Assembly (NCBI GenBank): GCA_030377965.1
Contig: JAUCGE010000004.1
Span: 1-64,000, forward strand
From: Desulfobacterales bacterium HSG16
GTDB lineage: Bacteria > Desulfobacterota > Desulfobacteria > Desulfobacterales > HSG16
Length of the DNA: 64,000 nt
Direction: 5' to 3'
Shown: positions 289 to 57,618 of the stretch, piece after piece
How the letters are laid out: each line of letters starts with the position of its first letter
Numbering within the stretch: position 1 is the stretch's first letter
Notes under the pieces: generated by a model
Database searches by the model: none
Seen by the model: only the letters and a program-made list of their open reading frames with translations
Told to the model about the DNA's origin: nothing
Translations under genes and position numbers: made by a program

Positions 289-870
289 TTAAACAGACTC
301 AGAAAGATATCGATCAAGCAAACGCTGATTATCTTCTTCCGTAACCAGTTCAGGAAGTTTTTTCTGTGCCTGTTCGATGGCTGCATCCACCATTTCCATC
401 TTGAAAGATTCCTTGCTTTGAACGATATAATTGTCGATTTTCTTTTTTGATGTTTCCATCATTGCAAGGCTTTGTTCCTTCGCTTCTTCGATAATGGACT
501 GGCGTTTTTTCTCACCCTCATTGATTATCCGATCTTTTATTTTTTCCAGTCGGATATCACATTGGGCCAAAGCTTCTTTCGCATTTCCCACCTCGGCTAA
601 AGCTTTTTGCTTTTCTATTTCCAGTTCCTTGATTTCGCCTGCAACATCTTCCTGCTGGTTCTGCAGGAAAGTGTTCAGCAATGGCCTGACATATTTAAAC
701 AGAAGTGCTGCCAGGATGAGAAAATTGATCCAGAGCATAACGCCATCATATGTCTGTCTCCAGCCGCCTGATTCTTCAGATGCCCATGCTGTCTGAGCAA
801 AGAATGTCAAGACTCCTGCTATAAGGCAGCACCGGAAGATAAAGATAGGGGTAAACAACTTGCCTTTCAT
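289..870 (-). CDS. atpF: F-type ATP synthase subunit b (with N-terminal leader)
   Basis: 193 residues. This is the peripheral stalk subunit that anchors F1 (via delta) to subunit a. Residues 1-30 form a hydrophobic, signal-like leader ending near AWA-SEE. A second hydrophobic segment follows at about 43-60 (the Fo membrane anchor), then a long charged, Ala/Glu/Lys-rich coiled coil to about 180. An N-terminal leader on b is common in deltaproteobacterial ATP synthases. It is the last gene of the Fo operon, 3 bp after atpF'. atpH and the F1 genes do not follow, so they must lie elsewhere in the genome. Confidence 0.9.
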   Translation of the reverse strand: MKGKLFTPIFIFRCCLIAGVLTFFAQTAWASEESGGWRQTYDGVMLWINFLILAALLFKYVRPLLNTFLQNQQEDVAGEIKELEIEKQKALAEVGNAKEALAQCDIRLEKIKDRIINEGEKKRQSIIEEAKEQSLAMMETSKKKIDNYIVQSKESFKMEMVDAAIEQAQKKLPELVTEEDNQRLLDRYLSESV

Positions 871-873
871 GGG

Positions 874-1323
874 TTAAAGCCTCCGGTCCAGTATTCTTTC
901 CATGATGGTTGCAGCCAGAGTTTCTGATTCTGTTTGAATATATTTTCTGGCCTCAGTTACCTGAATATCGACCTCTTGTTCGGTTTGTTTTCGTAATTTG
1001 CTGATCTCTCTGACCACGTTTTCAAATATCTCGGATGCTTTCTGTCCGCCTGTATCTTCGGCTTCTGCAGCTATTTCAAAGGCTTCTTTGCGAACAGCTT
1101 GTTCTTTTTCCCGAATTTGTTCAGAAATTTTATTTATCCGTTTTCCAGCATCCGTGATTTCTTCTTTAACCGTTTCGATAAAAATCGCCCGTTCCGCCAT
1201 CGTGCCGTTCAGAGGGCGGATCATGATTTTATTGATCAGAAACAAAAATATCAGAAACGATATCAGTTGAATGATCAGGGTTTCATTGATCGAAATCAGG
1301 GCAATATTGCTGACAATCTCCAT
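874..1323 (-). CDS. atpF': F-type ATP synthase subunit b' (second b-type stalk subunit)
   Basis: 149 residues. It has one N-terminal membrane helix (about residues 14-34, ending in NKIMIRPLNG) and then a Glu/Lys-rich coiled coil, the layout of b' subunits that pair with b to make a heterodimeric peripheral stalk. The start is supported by an AAGGAGAG Shine-Dalgarno just upstream of ATG 1323. It lies between atpE and atpF in the Fo operon. A b/b' pair is usual in Desulfobacterota, cyanobacteria and alphaproteobacteria. Confidence 0.88.
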   Translation of the reverse strand: MEIVSNIALISINETLIIQLISFLIFLFLINKIMIRPLNGTMAERAIFIETVKEEITDAGKRINKISEQIREKEQAVRKEAFEIAAEAEDTGGQKASEIFENVVREISKLRKQTEQEVDIQVTEARKYIQTESETLAATIMERILDRRL

Positions 1324-1346: not shown

Positions 1347-1595
1347 TTAGACAACGAACAGCAGCAGCAGGGCAATCACCAGGGAATAAATCCCGGTTGA
1401 CTCACTGACCGCCTGGCCTACCAGCATGGTTCTTGTCAACAGGCCGGCTTCCTTTGGATTTTTTCCGATAGCTTCACATGCTTTTGCAGCAGCCATGCCT
1501 TCACCGACTCCAGGTCCGATAGCTCCAAGGCCCATTGCAAGACCAGCTCCCAAAAATGCCGCAGCTTTTATTATATCTGCACCTTCAATTGCCAT
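1347..1595 (-). CDS. atpE: F-type ATP synthase subunit c (single hairpin, two-carboxylate Na+-type)
   Basis: 82 residues, one helical hairpin. Helix 1 carries the Gly-rich packing motif [10 protein letters not shown] and helix 2 carries [15 protein letters not shown]. Counting from Met1, the ion-site positions are E32, V63, E65, S66, T67 and Y70. In the Na+-binding Ilyobacter c ring the corresponding set is Q32, V63, E65, S66, T67, Y70. Glu at position 32 gives the two-carboxylate variant described for Fusobacterium nucleatum. Na+ coupling is therefore likely, but inferred. It follows a four-hairpin c gene by about 70 bp in the same operon, so two different c proteins can be made. Confidence 0.93.
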
Positions 1596-1665: not shown

Positions 1666-2640
1666 TCAGACTACGAACACCAGAACGAGTGCAATTACCA
1701 GAGAATAGATAGCCGTGGATTCAGCAACTGCCATACCCACCAGCATGAGCCTGACAATCTCGCCCGTATGTTTTTCGTTTCGTGCCACCCATGCTACACC
1801 TCCGCTGGATGCCACGCCTTCACCGATACCAGGGCCGATAGCCCCGAATCCGATACAGAGTCCTGATGCAAGAAGGGCCATTGCCGGAGCGAGGGCCGAG
1901 CTTGCTGCATATGATTTGAAAATAAGTATAAAACTGACCAGCAGGCCAAGTATTGCAGGTGTCTGTGTAATAGCCTGCCCTAAAAGCATGATATTGGTAA
2001 TTGTTGTGGTCGCGGCAGGCTGCCTTGCAATACCGTCGCAGCTCTGTTTGGCCACTATGCCGCCTCCAATGCCTGAGCCTATGGCTGACAGGCCTGATGC
2101 GAATCCTGCGCCCAGAACAGCAGCCCATGTGGGAGAAATCGGGCGGGCTGAAAAATCAGTGAACAGCAATATAAAAGATACCACCAGAGCGAAAATGGAA
2201 GGAGTCTGGCATACCGCTGAACCAATGAGCATGTTTGTGGTCAGCTTGTTGCTTACAGCAGGTTGTCTGACCATGCCGATACAGGCAGAGCCTGCTGGAA
2301 ACCCAGCGCCGATTCCTGCACCGATAGCGCCAATTCCCATGGAAAGTCCTGCTCCGAACACGGCTGGTATCATTACAGGAGTTGTGGCTGGAAAATTTGT
2401 GAACAGAAGAATCATGGCCACCACCAGAGCGAAAATGGAAGCAGATTCTGCAATTGCCTGACCCACCAGCATTGATTTGATAACATCGCCGGCTGCATTT
2501 CCGTTTCTGGAAATGGCCGAACTGGCCTGCGCTGCGGTATATCCTTCACCGATAGCTGCTCCGACGGCTCCGAAACCCATTGCGATTCCGCCGCCGATGT
2601 AGGCCGCTACATTCACCCATGTCTGAATATCAAGTCCCAT
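1666..2640 (-). CDS. atpE: Fused four-hairpin ATP synthase subunit c
   Basis: 324 residues, four tandem c-subunit hairpins (eight membrane helices) with a repeat of about 81 residues. The helix-2 ion-site residue is E65 in hairpin 1, Q145 in hairpin 2, Q226 in hairpin 3 and E307 in hairpin 4. The helix-1 partner is E32, A112, G193 and E274. Hairpins 1 and 4 are therefore two-carboxylate sites; hairpin 4 also keeps V305, S308, T309 and Y312. Hairpins 2 and 3 have lost both carboxylates and read QTP. The Gly-x-Gly packing motifs persist in all four, so the protein looks maintained rather than decaying. The reading frame is intact. It sits 3 bp after atpB and before the normal atpE. Duplicated c subunits with fewer sites are known in V-type rings and in Acetobacterium woodii. 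Confidence 0.9.
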   Translation of the reverse strand: MGLDIQTWVNVAAYIGGGIAMGFGAVGAAIGEGYTAAQASSAISRNGNAAGDVIKSMLVGQAIAESASIFALVVAMILLFTNFPATTPVMIPAVFGAGLSMGIGAIGAGIGAGFPAGSACIGMVRQPAVSNKLTTNMLIGSAVCQTPSIFALVVSFILLFTDFSARPISPTWAAVLGAGFASGLSAIGSGIGGGIVAKQSCDGIARQPAATTTITNIMLLGQAITQTPAILGLLVSFILIFKSYAASSALAPAMALLASGLCIGFGAIGPGIGEGVASSGGVAWVARNEKHTGEIVRLMLVGMAVAESTAIYSLVIALVLVFVV

Positions 2641-2643
2641 AAT

Positions 2644-3318
2644 TTACTTTACCTGCACTGAAATATACACAAGGGTTAGCATCGTGAAAACAAACGCCTG
2701 TATGGCGCCGATAAAGATTACGAAAAACGCGTTTAAAAAAGGTGGCAGAAGAACGCTGAACGTCAGATAGGATACCACCAGAATAATGATGGAACCGCCC
2801 ATTATATTGCCGAAAAGACGGAAGGAGATGGAAACAACTTTTGCCAGTTCCCCGATTATGTTCAAGGGAGCCATGAAAAATATCGGCTCGCAGTATTCCA
2901 TCAGATAAGCCTTGATTCCTTTGGCTCTGATCCCTGAGTAATGTGCTATCACAAAACCCAGCAGGCCGAGGCTTAATGGAGTGTTCAAATCTTTGGTAGG
3001 CTCGTGCATATGGGGAAACATGCCGATCCAGTTACAACAGACTAAAAACATGAACAATGCACATATTAAAGGCGCATATTTCGGGGCTGTTTTCTTGTCA
3101 AGAGCATCTTCTGTCAATTGATAAATCTGGCTGACTATGAGTTCACCGAGGATTTGAATCGGGCCAGGCATCAGTTTCTGTTTCCTTGCAGCCAGGAAAC
3201 CGAACAGAAGAAGGATTGCGATGACTATCCAGGTCATGAGGATAGCATCCAGATTGAAGGTCATTTTGTAATCCCCGAAGGGAACGATCAGTTGCCAGAC
3301 TTTTCCTAACTCATTCAT
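2644..3318 (-). CDS. atpB: F-type ATP synthase subunit a
   Basis: 224 residues, polytopic membrane protein forming the ion half-channels against the c ring. The essential stator arginine is R167 in ISFRLFGNIMGG, and helix 5-6 architecture is visible to the C-terminus (SVQVK). The PGPIQILGE and NWIGMFP segments are typical of the family. It is on the short side (E. coli a has 271 residues) but normal for the Desulfobacterota type. It lies 3 bp upstream of the fused c gene and just after atpI, the usual Fo order. Confidence 0.95.
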   Translation of the reverse strand: MNELGKVWQLIVPFGDYKMTFNLDAILMTWIVIAILLLFGFLAARKQKLMPGPIQILGELIVSQIYQLTEDALDKKTAPKYAPLICALFMFLVCCNWIGMFPHMHEPTKDLNTPLSLGLLGFVIAHYSGIRAKGIKAYLMEYCEPIFFMAPLNIIGELAKVVSISFRLFGNIMGGSIIILVVSYLTFSVLLPPFLNAFFVIFIGAIQAFVFTMLTLVYISVQVK

Positions 3319-3324
3319 AAGATG

Positions 3325-3723
3325 TTATTCCTCTATTTGTTTGTTTCGGATAGAGAATATATATTGACAGATATGATCGGCAAGAATCATGCCCTGGACT
3401 GAAAAAATACCAATAATTGCGGCAAAAAGATTAAATTGTTCGAATCGGATGGAAACTGCCAGGGGTATGGCTAAAAGCGTGTATCTGAATAATATGGAAC
3501 CCAGAGCTTTGGCAGAAGCCATTCTTCGTGAATGGTCGAGCCTGTACGGCAGGCTTTCTCCCATGAGTATGAAATTGATTATGCTGAAGATGGAACCTAA
3601 AAGCAGACCTTTGGCAATAGGTTTTTGATCGATAACAATGAAAAAGCAGGCTGCCATAATAGCTCCTGTGATGGCCAGTGAGCTATAGCGTTTTTCAGTT
3701 TGTCTAATGATTGTGGTTGTCAT
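3325..3723 (-). CDS. atpI: ATP synthase subunit I-like membrane protein (AtpI/AtpR)
   Basis: 132 residues starting MTTTIIRQTEKR, with four hydrophobic segments, matching the small Fo assembly proteins AtpI/AtpR that assist c-ring assembly. A longer open frame reaches 4083 but would run through the whole of atpZ in another frame. The ATG at 3723 gives a normal-sized protein that overlaps atpZ by only 20 bp, so I chose it. The charged residues R60 and R64 after helix 2 resemble the AtpR/AtpI type, but the family assignment is from topology and operon position rather than a strong motif. Confidence 0.75.
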   Translation of the reverse strand: MTTTIIRQTEKRYSSLAITGAIMAACFFIVIDQKPIAKGLLLGSIFSIINFILMGESLPYRLDHSRRMASAKALGSILFRYTLLAIPLAVSIRFEQFNLFAAIIGIFSVQGMILADHICQYIFSIRNKQIEE

Positions 3724-3973
3724 TGTCGGTGCTGTCTTCTTTCTTTTCGATTTCGGTGATTTCGAGAATCTGGCGGTAGACCACGTTTCCGCCCCCTGCA
3801 ATACCCAAAATGATAAAAAGGGTAATAAAGACCCCCCTGGTCCCGAACCATTTGTCCAGATTCCACCCCACGTAAAGGCAGAAAAGGATGCAGCCTGCCA
3901 TTGTAAGCCCCAGCTGCATGACAACTTGAAGATTTTCTGCCCAGTCCCGATTTTTTTTGTAGTCAAATCCCAT
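3704..3973 (-). CDS. atpZ: AtpZ/AtpQ-like Fo accessory protein
   Basis: 89 residues, two membrane helices (about 17-37 and 48-68) separated by a short loop GWNLDKWFGTRG, with an acidic/His tail (KKEDSTDNDNHNH). This is the pattern of AtpZ/AtpQ-family proteins encoded first in Fo operons and proposed to act in c-ring assembly or Mg2+/Ca2+ handling. It is the first gene of the operon, read from a predicted promoter near 4100. No strong Shine-Dalgarno precedes the ATG. Confidence 0.8.
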   Translation of the reverse strand: MGFDYKKNRDWAENLQVVMQLGLTMAGCILFCLYVGWNLDKWFGTRGVFITLFIILGIAGGGNVVYRQILEITEIEKKEDSTDNDNHNH

Positions 3974-56379: not shown

Positions 56380-57618
56380 ATGAAGAGATTTACTACAATT
56401 GCATTGGCAGCACTGCTGGTCGTGGCATTTACTTTGCCCGCATCAGCCCTTGAGAACGTGTTTGGCGGTTACTGGAGAACTCGTGCTTTCACCAATCAGA
56501 ATTTCAGCGGTGAAGATCAGACAGAAGCTCAAGATATTACGAAAGTTGATACAAGGACCCGTCTGTATTATACAGCAATCATTAATGACGATCTCAAATT
56601 CGTTAATAAATTTGAGTTTGATGCTGCATGGGGAGACGAAGGACACGGCGATATCGGTGCAGATGGGAAGAATGTTGAAGTTAAGAATTCCTATGCTGAT
56701 TTTAACGTTGGAATGGCCAATGCTAAAGTAGGTGTTCAGGGACTGACAATTTCTCGTGGATTTCTCTTTGCCGATGACTTCGCTGGCGCTGTGGTTACAC
56801 TCAAGCCTGCCGAAAACGTAGCCATTCCTCTGGTATGGATCAAGGCGTATGAAGGTGGAACCGCCAACAACAATCTTGATGTCGACTACTACGGAGCAGT
56901 TCCTGTTTTCACACCAAGCGAGACTCTGACGGTTCAGCCTATCTTTATATGGGCAACCAGTGACAACGCAAGTGGCTGGTTCAAAACTGCTGCCTATGAT
57001 GATGTAGATATCTACTATGCTGGTCTTAATCTTGATGCTAAGTTCGACGGCGGAAAATTTTGGTTCACAGGTATTTATGAAGGTGGTTCAGTTGATATGG
57101 CTGGCGCAGGTGACAATTCCACAGATATTAGCGCATGGTTGGCCGCAGTCGGCGCATCAATTGATGTAGAAGCTGCTGATATTCACACCCAGGCATTCTA
57201 TGCCACAGGCCAGGATGGTGACAGCAAGGATGCTGAAGCATTCTTCGTACCAAAAGGACAGTCCTACTACTGGGCTGAAATCATGGGCTTTGGAACTTTT
57301 GATGATCAGGTATCCAATGGTTCTTGTGCAGATCAGATCAGCGACATAATGGCTGCCAACATTGGTGCAACTGTAAAAGCTGCTGACGGCCTGGCAGTTA
57401 CACTTGATCTGTGGTATGCAACACTGGCAGAAGACGATGCAAATGGTGAAAAAGATCTGGGTATCGAAGTTGATCTCAAAGTAGCTTACGATCTCGTCGA
57501 AAACATGAAGCTGGAACTGATCGGCGCTTACCTGTTCGCAGGTGATGCTACAACCATGAAGAGCAATGATGATGCTAATCCTTACGAACTCGGTTCAAGG
57601 ATTTCCTTCAGCTTCTAA
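56380..57618 (+). CDS. Outer-membrane porin of the deltaproteobacterial type
   Basis: 412 residues. Signal peptide at 1-23 (ending ASA-LE), then an acidic, Gly/Asp-rich beta-barrel pattern of alternating strands, with aromatic girdle residues and a C-terminal Phe (RISFSF), the outer-membrane assembly signal. FGGYWRTRAFT at the start of the mature protein and DTRTRLYYT are typical for porins of sulfate reducers. Likely a major general or anion pore. AAGGAG ribosome site and its own strong terminator suggest high expression. Confidence 0.83.
   Translation: MKRFTTIALAALLVVAFTLPASALENVFGGYWRTRAFTNQNFSGEDQTEAQDITKVDTRTRLYYTAIINDDLKFVNKFEFDAAWGDEGHGDIGADGKNVEVKNSYADFNVGMANAKVGVQGLTISRGFLFADDFAGAVVTLKPAENVAIPLVWIKAYEGGTANNNLDVDYYGAVPVFTPSETLTVQPIFIWATSDNASGWFKTAAYDDVDIYYAGLNLDAKFDGGKFWFTGIYEGGSVDMAGAGDNSTDISAWLAAVGASIDVEAADIHTQAFYATGQDGDSKDAEAFFVPKGQSYYWAEIMGFGTFDDQVSNGSCADQISDIMAANIGATVKAADGLAVTLDLWYATLAEDDANGEKDLGIEVDLKVAYDLVENMKLELIGAYLFAGDATTMKSNDDANPYELGSRISFSF

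What the first reader, a model, noticed from the sequence alone, without database searches (positions are those of the whole stretch)
1666..2640. Four-hairpin fused ATP synthase c subunit that keeps ion sites only in its outer hairpins
The 324-residue protein is four c hairpins in one chain with a period of about 81 residues. At the ion site the residues are E65, Q145, Q226, E307, and the helix-1 partners are E32, A112, G193, E274. Both carboxylates are lost together in hairpins 2 and 3 (QTP), while the Gly packing motifs are kept. It is known that V-type c and Acetobacterium c1 duplicate hairpins and drop a site. A four-unit chain with two silent inner hairpins, encoded next to a normal c gene, is not an arrangement I know to be described. 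If built into the rotor, it would lower ions per turn and could set the ratio of active to silent sites through mixing.
Basis: partly seen in the sequence, partly recalled or inferred. Interest (0 to 1): 0.82.

Follow-up and report, generated by a model that had tools for sequence, protein, structure and literature searches.

The report
Sodium rotor subunit with silent hairpins
Many sulfate-reducing bacteria and their relatives carry a sodium-type ATP synthase rotor part made of two to six fused units, some consistently lacking an ion site, which probably changes how many ions are moved per ATP; the principle is known from acetogens, but this extended, widely conserved form seems undescribed.

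Summary
Window 1666-2640 (minus strand) encodes four fused c hairpins with E/E, A/Q, G/Q, E/E at the two ion-site positions, inside a complete Fo operon (AtpZ, AtpI, a, c4, c, b', b). I collected 135 such proteins from Desulfobacterota and related MAGs, with 2 to 6 hairpins and patterns from EQ to EQQQQQ. The first hairpin always keeps Glu; lost sites are Gln in 324 of 325 cases; both carboxylates go together. Residues 67 and 70 of a hairpin follow whether the NEXT hairpin has its Glu, and the last hairpin keeps them even after losing its own Glu, so an E-bearing subunit should follow it in a ring. The neighbouring single c has a far stronger ribosome site (158 of 160 loci). Best reading: one fused chain is built into an otherwise normal Na+ c-ring and lowers Na+ per ATP. 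This is an independent, extended version of the Acetobacterium c1/c2 hybrid rotor. Most genomes have two Fo sets but one matching F1; in one draft genome the fused-c Fo is the only one found. Ring composition, ion specificity and function remain untested.

The parts
1666..2640 (-). Fused four-hairpin F-type c subunit (c4), ion-site pattern E-Q-Q-E
   Evidence: AlphaFold2 mean pLDDT 94.6, pTM 0.90
1347..1595 (-). Single-hairpin c subunit, two-carboxylate Na+ type (E32; V63, E65, S66, T67, Y70)
   Evidence: ribosome-site energy -10.3 kcal/mol against -4.0 for c4
2644..3318 (-). atpB, Fo subunit a, with intact SFRLFGN arginine motif
   Evidence: PF00119, E 1.6e-51; alignment of subunits a
3325..3720 (-). 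AtpI-like (start codon not settled)
   Evidence: PF03899, E 1.1e-8; reading frame
3704..3973 (-). AtpZ-like
   Evidence: PF09527, E 1e-14
874..1323 (-). Fo subunit b-prime
   Evidence: PF00430; best NCBIfam model is subunit B'
289..870 (-). Fo subunit b
   Evidence: PF00430
219..249 (-). Terminator-like hairpin after b; no F1 genes between b and the contig end
   Evidence: 13-pair stem with T-rich tail
2446..2448 (-). E65 codon, ion site of hairpin 1 (active)
   Evidence: Residue 65 of the ORF
2206..2208 (-). Q145 codon, hairpin 2 (silent)
   Evidence: Residue 145 of the ORF
1963..1965 (-). Q226 codon, hairpin 3 (silent)
   Evidence: Residue 226 of the ORF
1720..1722 (-). E307 codon, ion site of hairpin 4 (active)
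   Evidence: Residue 307 of the ORF

Best explanation
c4 is a rotor (c-ring) subunit of a Na+-type Fo. One c4 chain is most likely inserted per ring among copies of the single c. Its first hairpin's E32/E65 is completed by V63/S66/T67/Y70 of the c before it, and its last hairpin's S66/T67/Y70 complete the site of the c after it. The inner hairpins are fixed as neutral Gln, probably mimicking an occupied site, and carry no ion. The ring keeps its number of hairpins but carries fewer Na+ per turn, so fewer Na+ per ATP. Such a gear suits an ATP-driven Na+ pump that builds a steep gradient, or ATP synthesis at high sodium-motive force. In most genomes this Fo appears to share the cell's one matching F1 with a second, conventional (probably H+) Fo. 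Shown: sequences, conservation, operon, co-variation, relative ribosome-site strength. Inferred: ring insertion, one copy per ring, Na+ specificity, lowered ion/ATP ratio, sharing of F1.
For: 135 fused-c proteins; gene order Z-I-a-Cn-c-b'-b in most loci, and in several lineages one operon with delta, alpha, gamma, beta. E32 and E65 agree within a hairpin in 539 of 545 cases, and an acidic residue 32 never stays without E65. Silent sites use both CAA and CAG but stay Gln in 324 of 325. Y70 of hairpin i is present in 69 of 85 cases when hairpin i+1 has Glu and in 3 of 324 when it does not; T67 63/85 against 1/324; no link with the hairpin's own Glu. Last hairpins that lost their own Glu keep S66, T67 and Y70, each in 60 of 61, which fits the published two-subunit Na+ site (PMC3692424). 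Single c is about 92% identical among relatives and has the stronger ribosome site in 158 of 160 loci. Closest solved structure by sequence and by fold is A. woodii c1 in its c-ring, where entry 4BEM holds one c1 chain and nine c2 chains. One draft genome (G448) shows one a, one gamma and only c4 plus c.
Against: In Bacillus PS3 a single E-to-Q change in a fused c10 ring abolishes pumping and synthesis (PMC8809890), so runs of 2 to 5 Gln are mechanically surprising, and no obvious compensating change in subunit a separates modules with and without fused c. One genome (G049) has the module without a fused c. The co-variation rests on few independent changes (2 concordant, 0 discordant supported pairs; not significant alone), and the window's own clade (QTPAIL before an E hairpin) breaks it. 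No protein data.
Confidence: 0.68

Rival explanations
1. c4 is a ring nucleator or ring-size ruler: one fused chain seeds assembly, fixes hairpin number, or keeps this ring's subunits apart from those of the cell's other Fo. Silent sites are tolerated side effects.
For: Weak c4 ribosome site implies few copies; two Fo sets in one cell would need sorting.
Against: Does not explain why silent sites stay Gln, why both carboxylates go together, or why chains with more silent hairpins evolved. G049 has the module without any fused c.
Confidence: 0.15
2. c4 is a brake: rings that contain it cannot rotate past the silent stretch, so incorporation shuts the Fo or prevents ion leak.
For: One E-to-Q blocks the PS3 ring (PMC8809890).
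Against: A Na+-dependent acetogen synthase encodes a c1 with a Gln hairpin (PMC7911925). In G448 the fused-c Fo seems to be the only Fo, and in several lineages it sits in the operon of the only matching F1.
Confidence: 0.08
3. The ring is made of fused chains only, with the single c serving another purpose.
For: 2, 3, 4 and 6 hairpins divide 12; last-to-first junctions between fused chains would also be complete sites.
Against: 5-hairpin chains exist; a 12-hairpin ring of two EQQQQQ chains would hold only two sites; the single c is the most conserved and most strongly initiated gene.
Confidence: 0.05
4. c4 is a decaying gene fusion without function.
For: Loss of carboxylates in inner hairpins.
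Against: Open frame, synteny and near-invariant Gln in more than 130 genes.
Confidence: 0.02

Closest known systems
Acetobacterium woodii / Clostridium aceticum hybrid F/V rotor (c1 plus c2/c3)
   Same: Fused c with first hairpin active and the second silent by E-to-Q with the same QT motif, next to a single-hairpin c of Na+ type; one c1 and nine c2 chains in PDB 4BEM (PMC7911925)
   Different: Here 2 to 6 hairpins, one to five silent sites, two-carboxylate (E32) chemistry, often a separate Fo operon. The hairpins of c1 group with each other and with other Na+ c subunits, so the fusion looks independent
Fusobacterium nucleatum two-carboxylate Na+ c-ring
   Same: E32 plus E65, with V63/S66 from the adjacent subunit (PMC3692424)
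   Different: Homomeric c11; no fused or silent hairpins
V-type c / Enterococcus hirae NtpK (one site per two hairpins)
   Same: Fused hairpins with silent ones, fewer ions per turn; fold matches
   Different: V/A-type; regular alternation over the whole ring; here F-type, with silent sites confined to one chain
Archaeal multi-hairpin c (Methanopyrus 13, Methanocaldococcus 3)
   Same: Several hairpins in one chain (PMC2359735)
   Different: A-type; all 13 Methanopyrus hairpins keep the ion site
Desulfococcus oleovorans ectopic second Fo (PMC4154653)
   Same: A second full Fo set outside the main locus was noted there
   Different: Treated as an oddity of one species; no fused or silent c described in the passages I read

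Membership tests
F-type ATP synthase c subunit (PF00137) | Two-helix hairpin with glycine-rich helix 1 and carboxylate in helix 2 | tested here: met
   Four PF00137 matches in c4; carboxylate kept in hairpins 1 and 4, Gln in 2 and 3
F-type ATP synthase c subunit (PF00137) | Encoded with F-type a, b (and F1) | tested here: met
   PF00119 and PF00430 neighbours; F1 genes in the same operon in some lineages
Na+-type c-ring, two-carboxylate | E32, E65, S66 with T67/Y70 | tested here: met
   Complete in the single c and in most last-E hairpins; hairpin 1 has A67/F70 instead
Na+-type c-ring, two-carboxylate | Na+-dependent activity | not testable with these tools
   Needs biochemistry
Hybrid (heteromeric) rotor, A. 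woodii kind | Fused c with a silent hairpin plus single c in the same operon | tested here: met
Hybrid (heteromeric) rotor, A. woodii kind | Both subunits in one ring | not testable with these tools
   Only indirect support from junction residues and ribosome-site strength
Hybrid (heteromeric) rotor, A. woodii kind | Common descent of the fused gene with A. woodii c1 (not required to be a hybrid rotor) | tested here: inconclusive
   c1 hairpins lie nearest each other and I. tartaricus/F. nucleatum c, not the corresponding c4 hairpins, which points to independent fusion; sequences are short
V-type ATPase c subunit | V/A-type partner subunits | tested here: not met
   Operon is F-type
N-ATPase (alternate F1F0) | Own divergent F1 in the operon | tested here: not met
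   No F1 in the window operon; separate divergent a/gamma pairs occur in some of the same genomes

The most novel reading that the evidence does not exclude
Desulfobacterota have evolved a stepwise geared rotor: the number of dead hairpins (1 to 5) in one fused subunit sets Na+ per ATP in discrete steps, and this geared Na+ Fo alternates with a conventional Fo on the same F1, so one catalytic head serves two ion circuits.
Probability: 0.4. Interest if true: 0.85.

Novelty: new variant of a known kind. Interest (0 to 1): 0.62.

Why it matters
It would give a natural series of F-type rotors with one to five silent sites, which is what is needed to test whether the ion/ATP ratio follows active sites or ring size, and how a ring passes a stretch without carboxylates that an engineered ring does not tolerate. 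It also points to one F1 working with two Fo sectors of different ion, an arrangement relevant to marine sulfate reducers that live near the energy limit.

Tried and rejected
Chance or decay of the pattern: rejected. Common origin with A. woodii c1: not supported. A V-type or N-ATPase assignment: rejected. Compensating changes in subunit a specific to modules with fused c: none evident, though only two loci without a fused c were available. A formal phylogenetic test of the neighbour co-variation: too few independent changes. The paper on the 4BEM structure and the 2015 review of hybrid rotors (Brandt and Mueller) are not held; from memory the review lists about twelve anaerobes with one F- and one V-type c gene in one operon, and I could not check whether any of them belongs to this family.

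Full report
OBSERVATION. The ORF is real, at the stated coordinates but on the minus strand. Its 324 residues form four c hairpins 80-81 residues apart, each a PF00137 match. Positions 32/65 of the four hairpins are E/E, A/Q, G/Q, E/E. AlphaFold2 with 19 related sequences gives a confident model of eight long helical stretches (mean pLDDT 94.6, pTM 0.90), with one-residue helix breaks at Q145 and Q226.

SURROUNDINGS. On the minus strand the order is AtpZ-like, AtpI-like, a, c4, c, b', b, followed by a 13-pair terminator-like hairpin at 249-219. No F1 gene is in this operon. Delta, alpha, gamma, beta and epsilon lie on another contig (C50) after a b gene, and a second a/c pair of conventional type (Q32; E65-S-L-C-I-Y) lies on contig C359.

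DISTRIBUTION. About 35 of 58 sampled genomes of the same order carry a fused version. A scan of named genomes gave 80 further loci, among them the isolates Desulfosarcina alkanivorans, Desulfatibacillum alkenivorans, Desulfosarcina cetonica and Dethiosulfatarculus sandiegensis. A phylum-wide sample found strong matches in 45 of 394 genomes. After removal of duplicates I had 135 fused proteins: 4 with two hairpins, 9 with three, 105 with four, 12 with five and 5 with six. Patterns: EE 1, EQ 3, EQE 4, EQQ 5, EQEE 11, EQEQ 1, EQQE 48 (plus one cut off), EQQQ 43, EQQS 1, EQQQE 8, EQQQQ 4, EQQQQQ 5. A few of these counts depend on automatic hairpin detection and were not checked by eye. The gene order around them is nearly constant.

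CONSTRAINT. Hairpin 1 has Glu in all 134 readable cases. Lost sites are Gln in 324 of 325, with both Gln codons in use, so Gln itself is kept, not merely the absence of Glu. E32 and E65 are present or absent together in 539 of 545 hairpins; the six exceptions keep E65 without an acidic residue 32.

JUNCTION LOGIC. In the Fusobacterium two-carboxylate ring, Na+ is bound by E32 and E65 of one subunit and by S66 and the V63 carbonyl of the adjacent one, with Y70 helping (PMC3692424). Across the fused chains, T67 and Y70 of hairpin i depend on whether hairpin i+1 has Glu (Y70 69/85 against 3/324; T67 63/85 against 1/324) and not on the hairpin's own Glu; the opposite direction shows no positive link. 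Last hairpins keep S66, T67 and Y70 even when their own E32 and E65 are gone (each in 60 of 61), while first hairpins keep E32/E65 but have A67/F70. The simplest reading is that the chain is built into a ring, with an E-bearing subunit after it and a T67/Y70-bearing one before it. The single c fits both roles. Caveats: few independent changes, and the window's own clade has QTPAIL before an active hairpin 4.

STOICHIOMETRY. Ribosome-site energies are -4.0 (c4) and -10.3 kcal/mol (c) in the window, and c is the stronger in 158 of 160 loci (some overlapping). This suggests few fused chains per many c. If one chain sat in an 11-hairpin ring, the size of the F-type Na+ rings listed in PMC3692424, EQQE would leave 9 and EQQQ 8 sites, 3.0 and 2.67 Na+ per ATP. 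The ring size here is unknown.

ONE F1, TWO FO. In the genomes tested there is as a rule one more subunit a than gamma, also after the divergent N-ATPase-like pairs are set aside, and a single delta where delta was counted. This includes one-contig genomes (G010, G300, G329, G075) and the complete genome of D. alkanivorans. In some lineages the fused-c Fo shares an operon with the only matching F1. In G448, a 2.6-Mb draft, the fused-c Fo is the only one found. G018 also shows only this type of c but is 85% complete. Sharing of F1 is inferred from gene counts only. A second Fo set outside the main locus was noted before for Desulfococcus oleovorans (PMC4154653), and two to four atpE copies for Desulfatiglans relatives (PMC13343851).

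COMPARISON. The best match by sequence and by fold is A. woodii c1, whose second hairpin shows the same QT. The same holds for C. aceticum, whose authors infer a reduced Na+/ATP ratio (PMC7911925). The hairpins of c1 group with each other and with other Na+ c subunits, which points to convergence. Against easy acceptance stands the PS3 ring, in which one E-to-Q stops all activity (PMC8809890). How the natural rings pass up to five silent hairpins is open.

VERDICT. The finding is a real, widely conserved rotor subunit: a new variant of the hybrid-rotor kind. A lowered ion/ATP ratio is its most likely effect, not shown here.

Noticed in passing
G000:C359 and C50 (L113, L114); also L115-L123: Conventional a/c pair and a separate F1 operon: most carriers seem to have two Fo sets for one matching F1.
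   Followed up: partly
L131 (G049:C1:2556000-2567000): The same Fo module without any fused c gene: a natural control for its function.
   Followed up: partly
L172 (G174:C225): Two-hairpin fused c with both sites intact (EE) after a single c: looks like an unspecialised fusion.
   Followed up: no
L127 (G022:C60): c4 followed by two single c genes in tandem.
   Followed up: no
G036:C16 and G036:C29 (L007, L129): One draft genome holds two different c4 genes.
   Followed up: no
L121 (G010:C1:14000-30000): An N-ATPase-like operon with its own gamma occurs besides the two Fo sets.
   Followed up: no
window 56380-57618 +: 412-residue ORF with no Pfam match.
   Followed up: no
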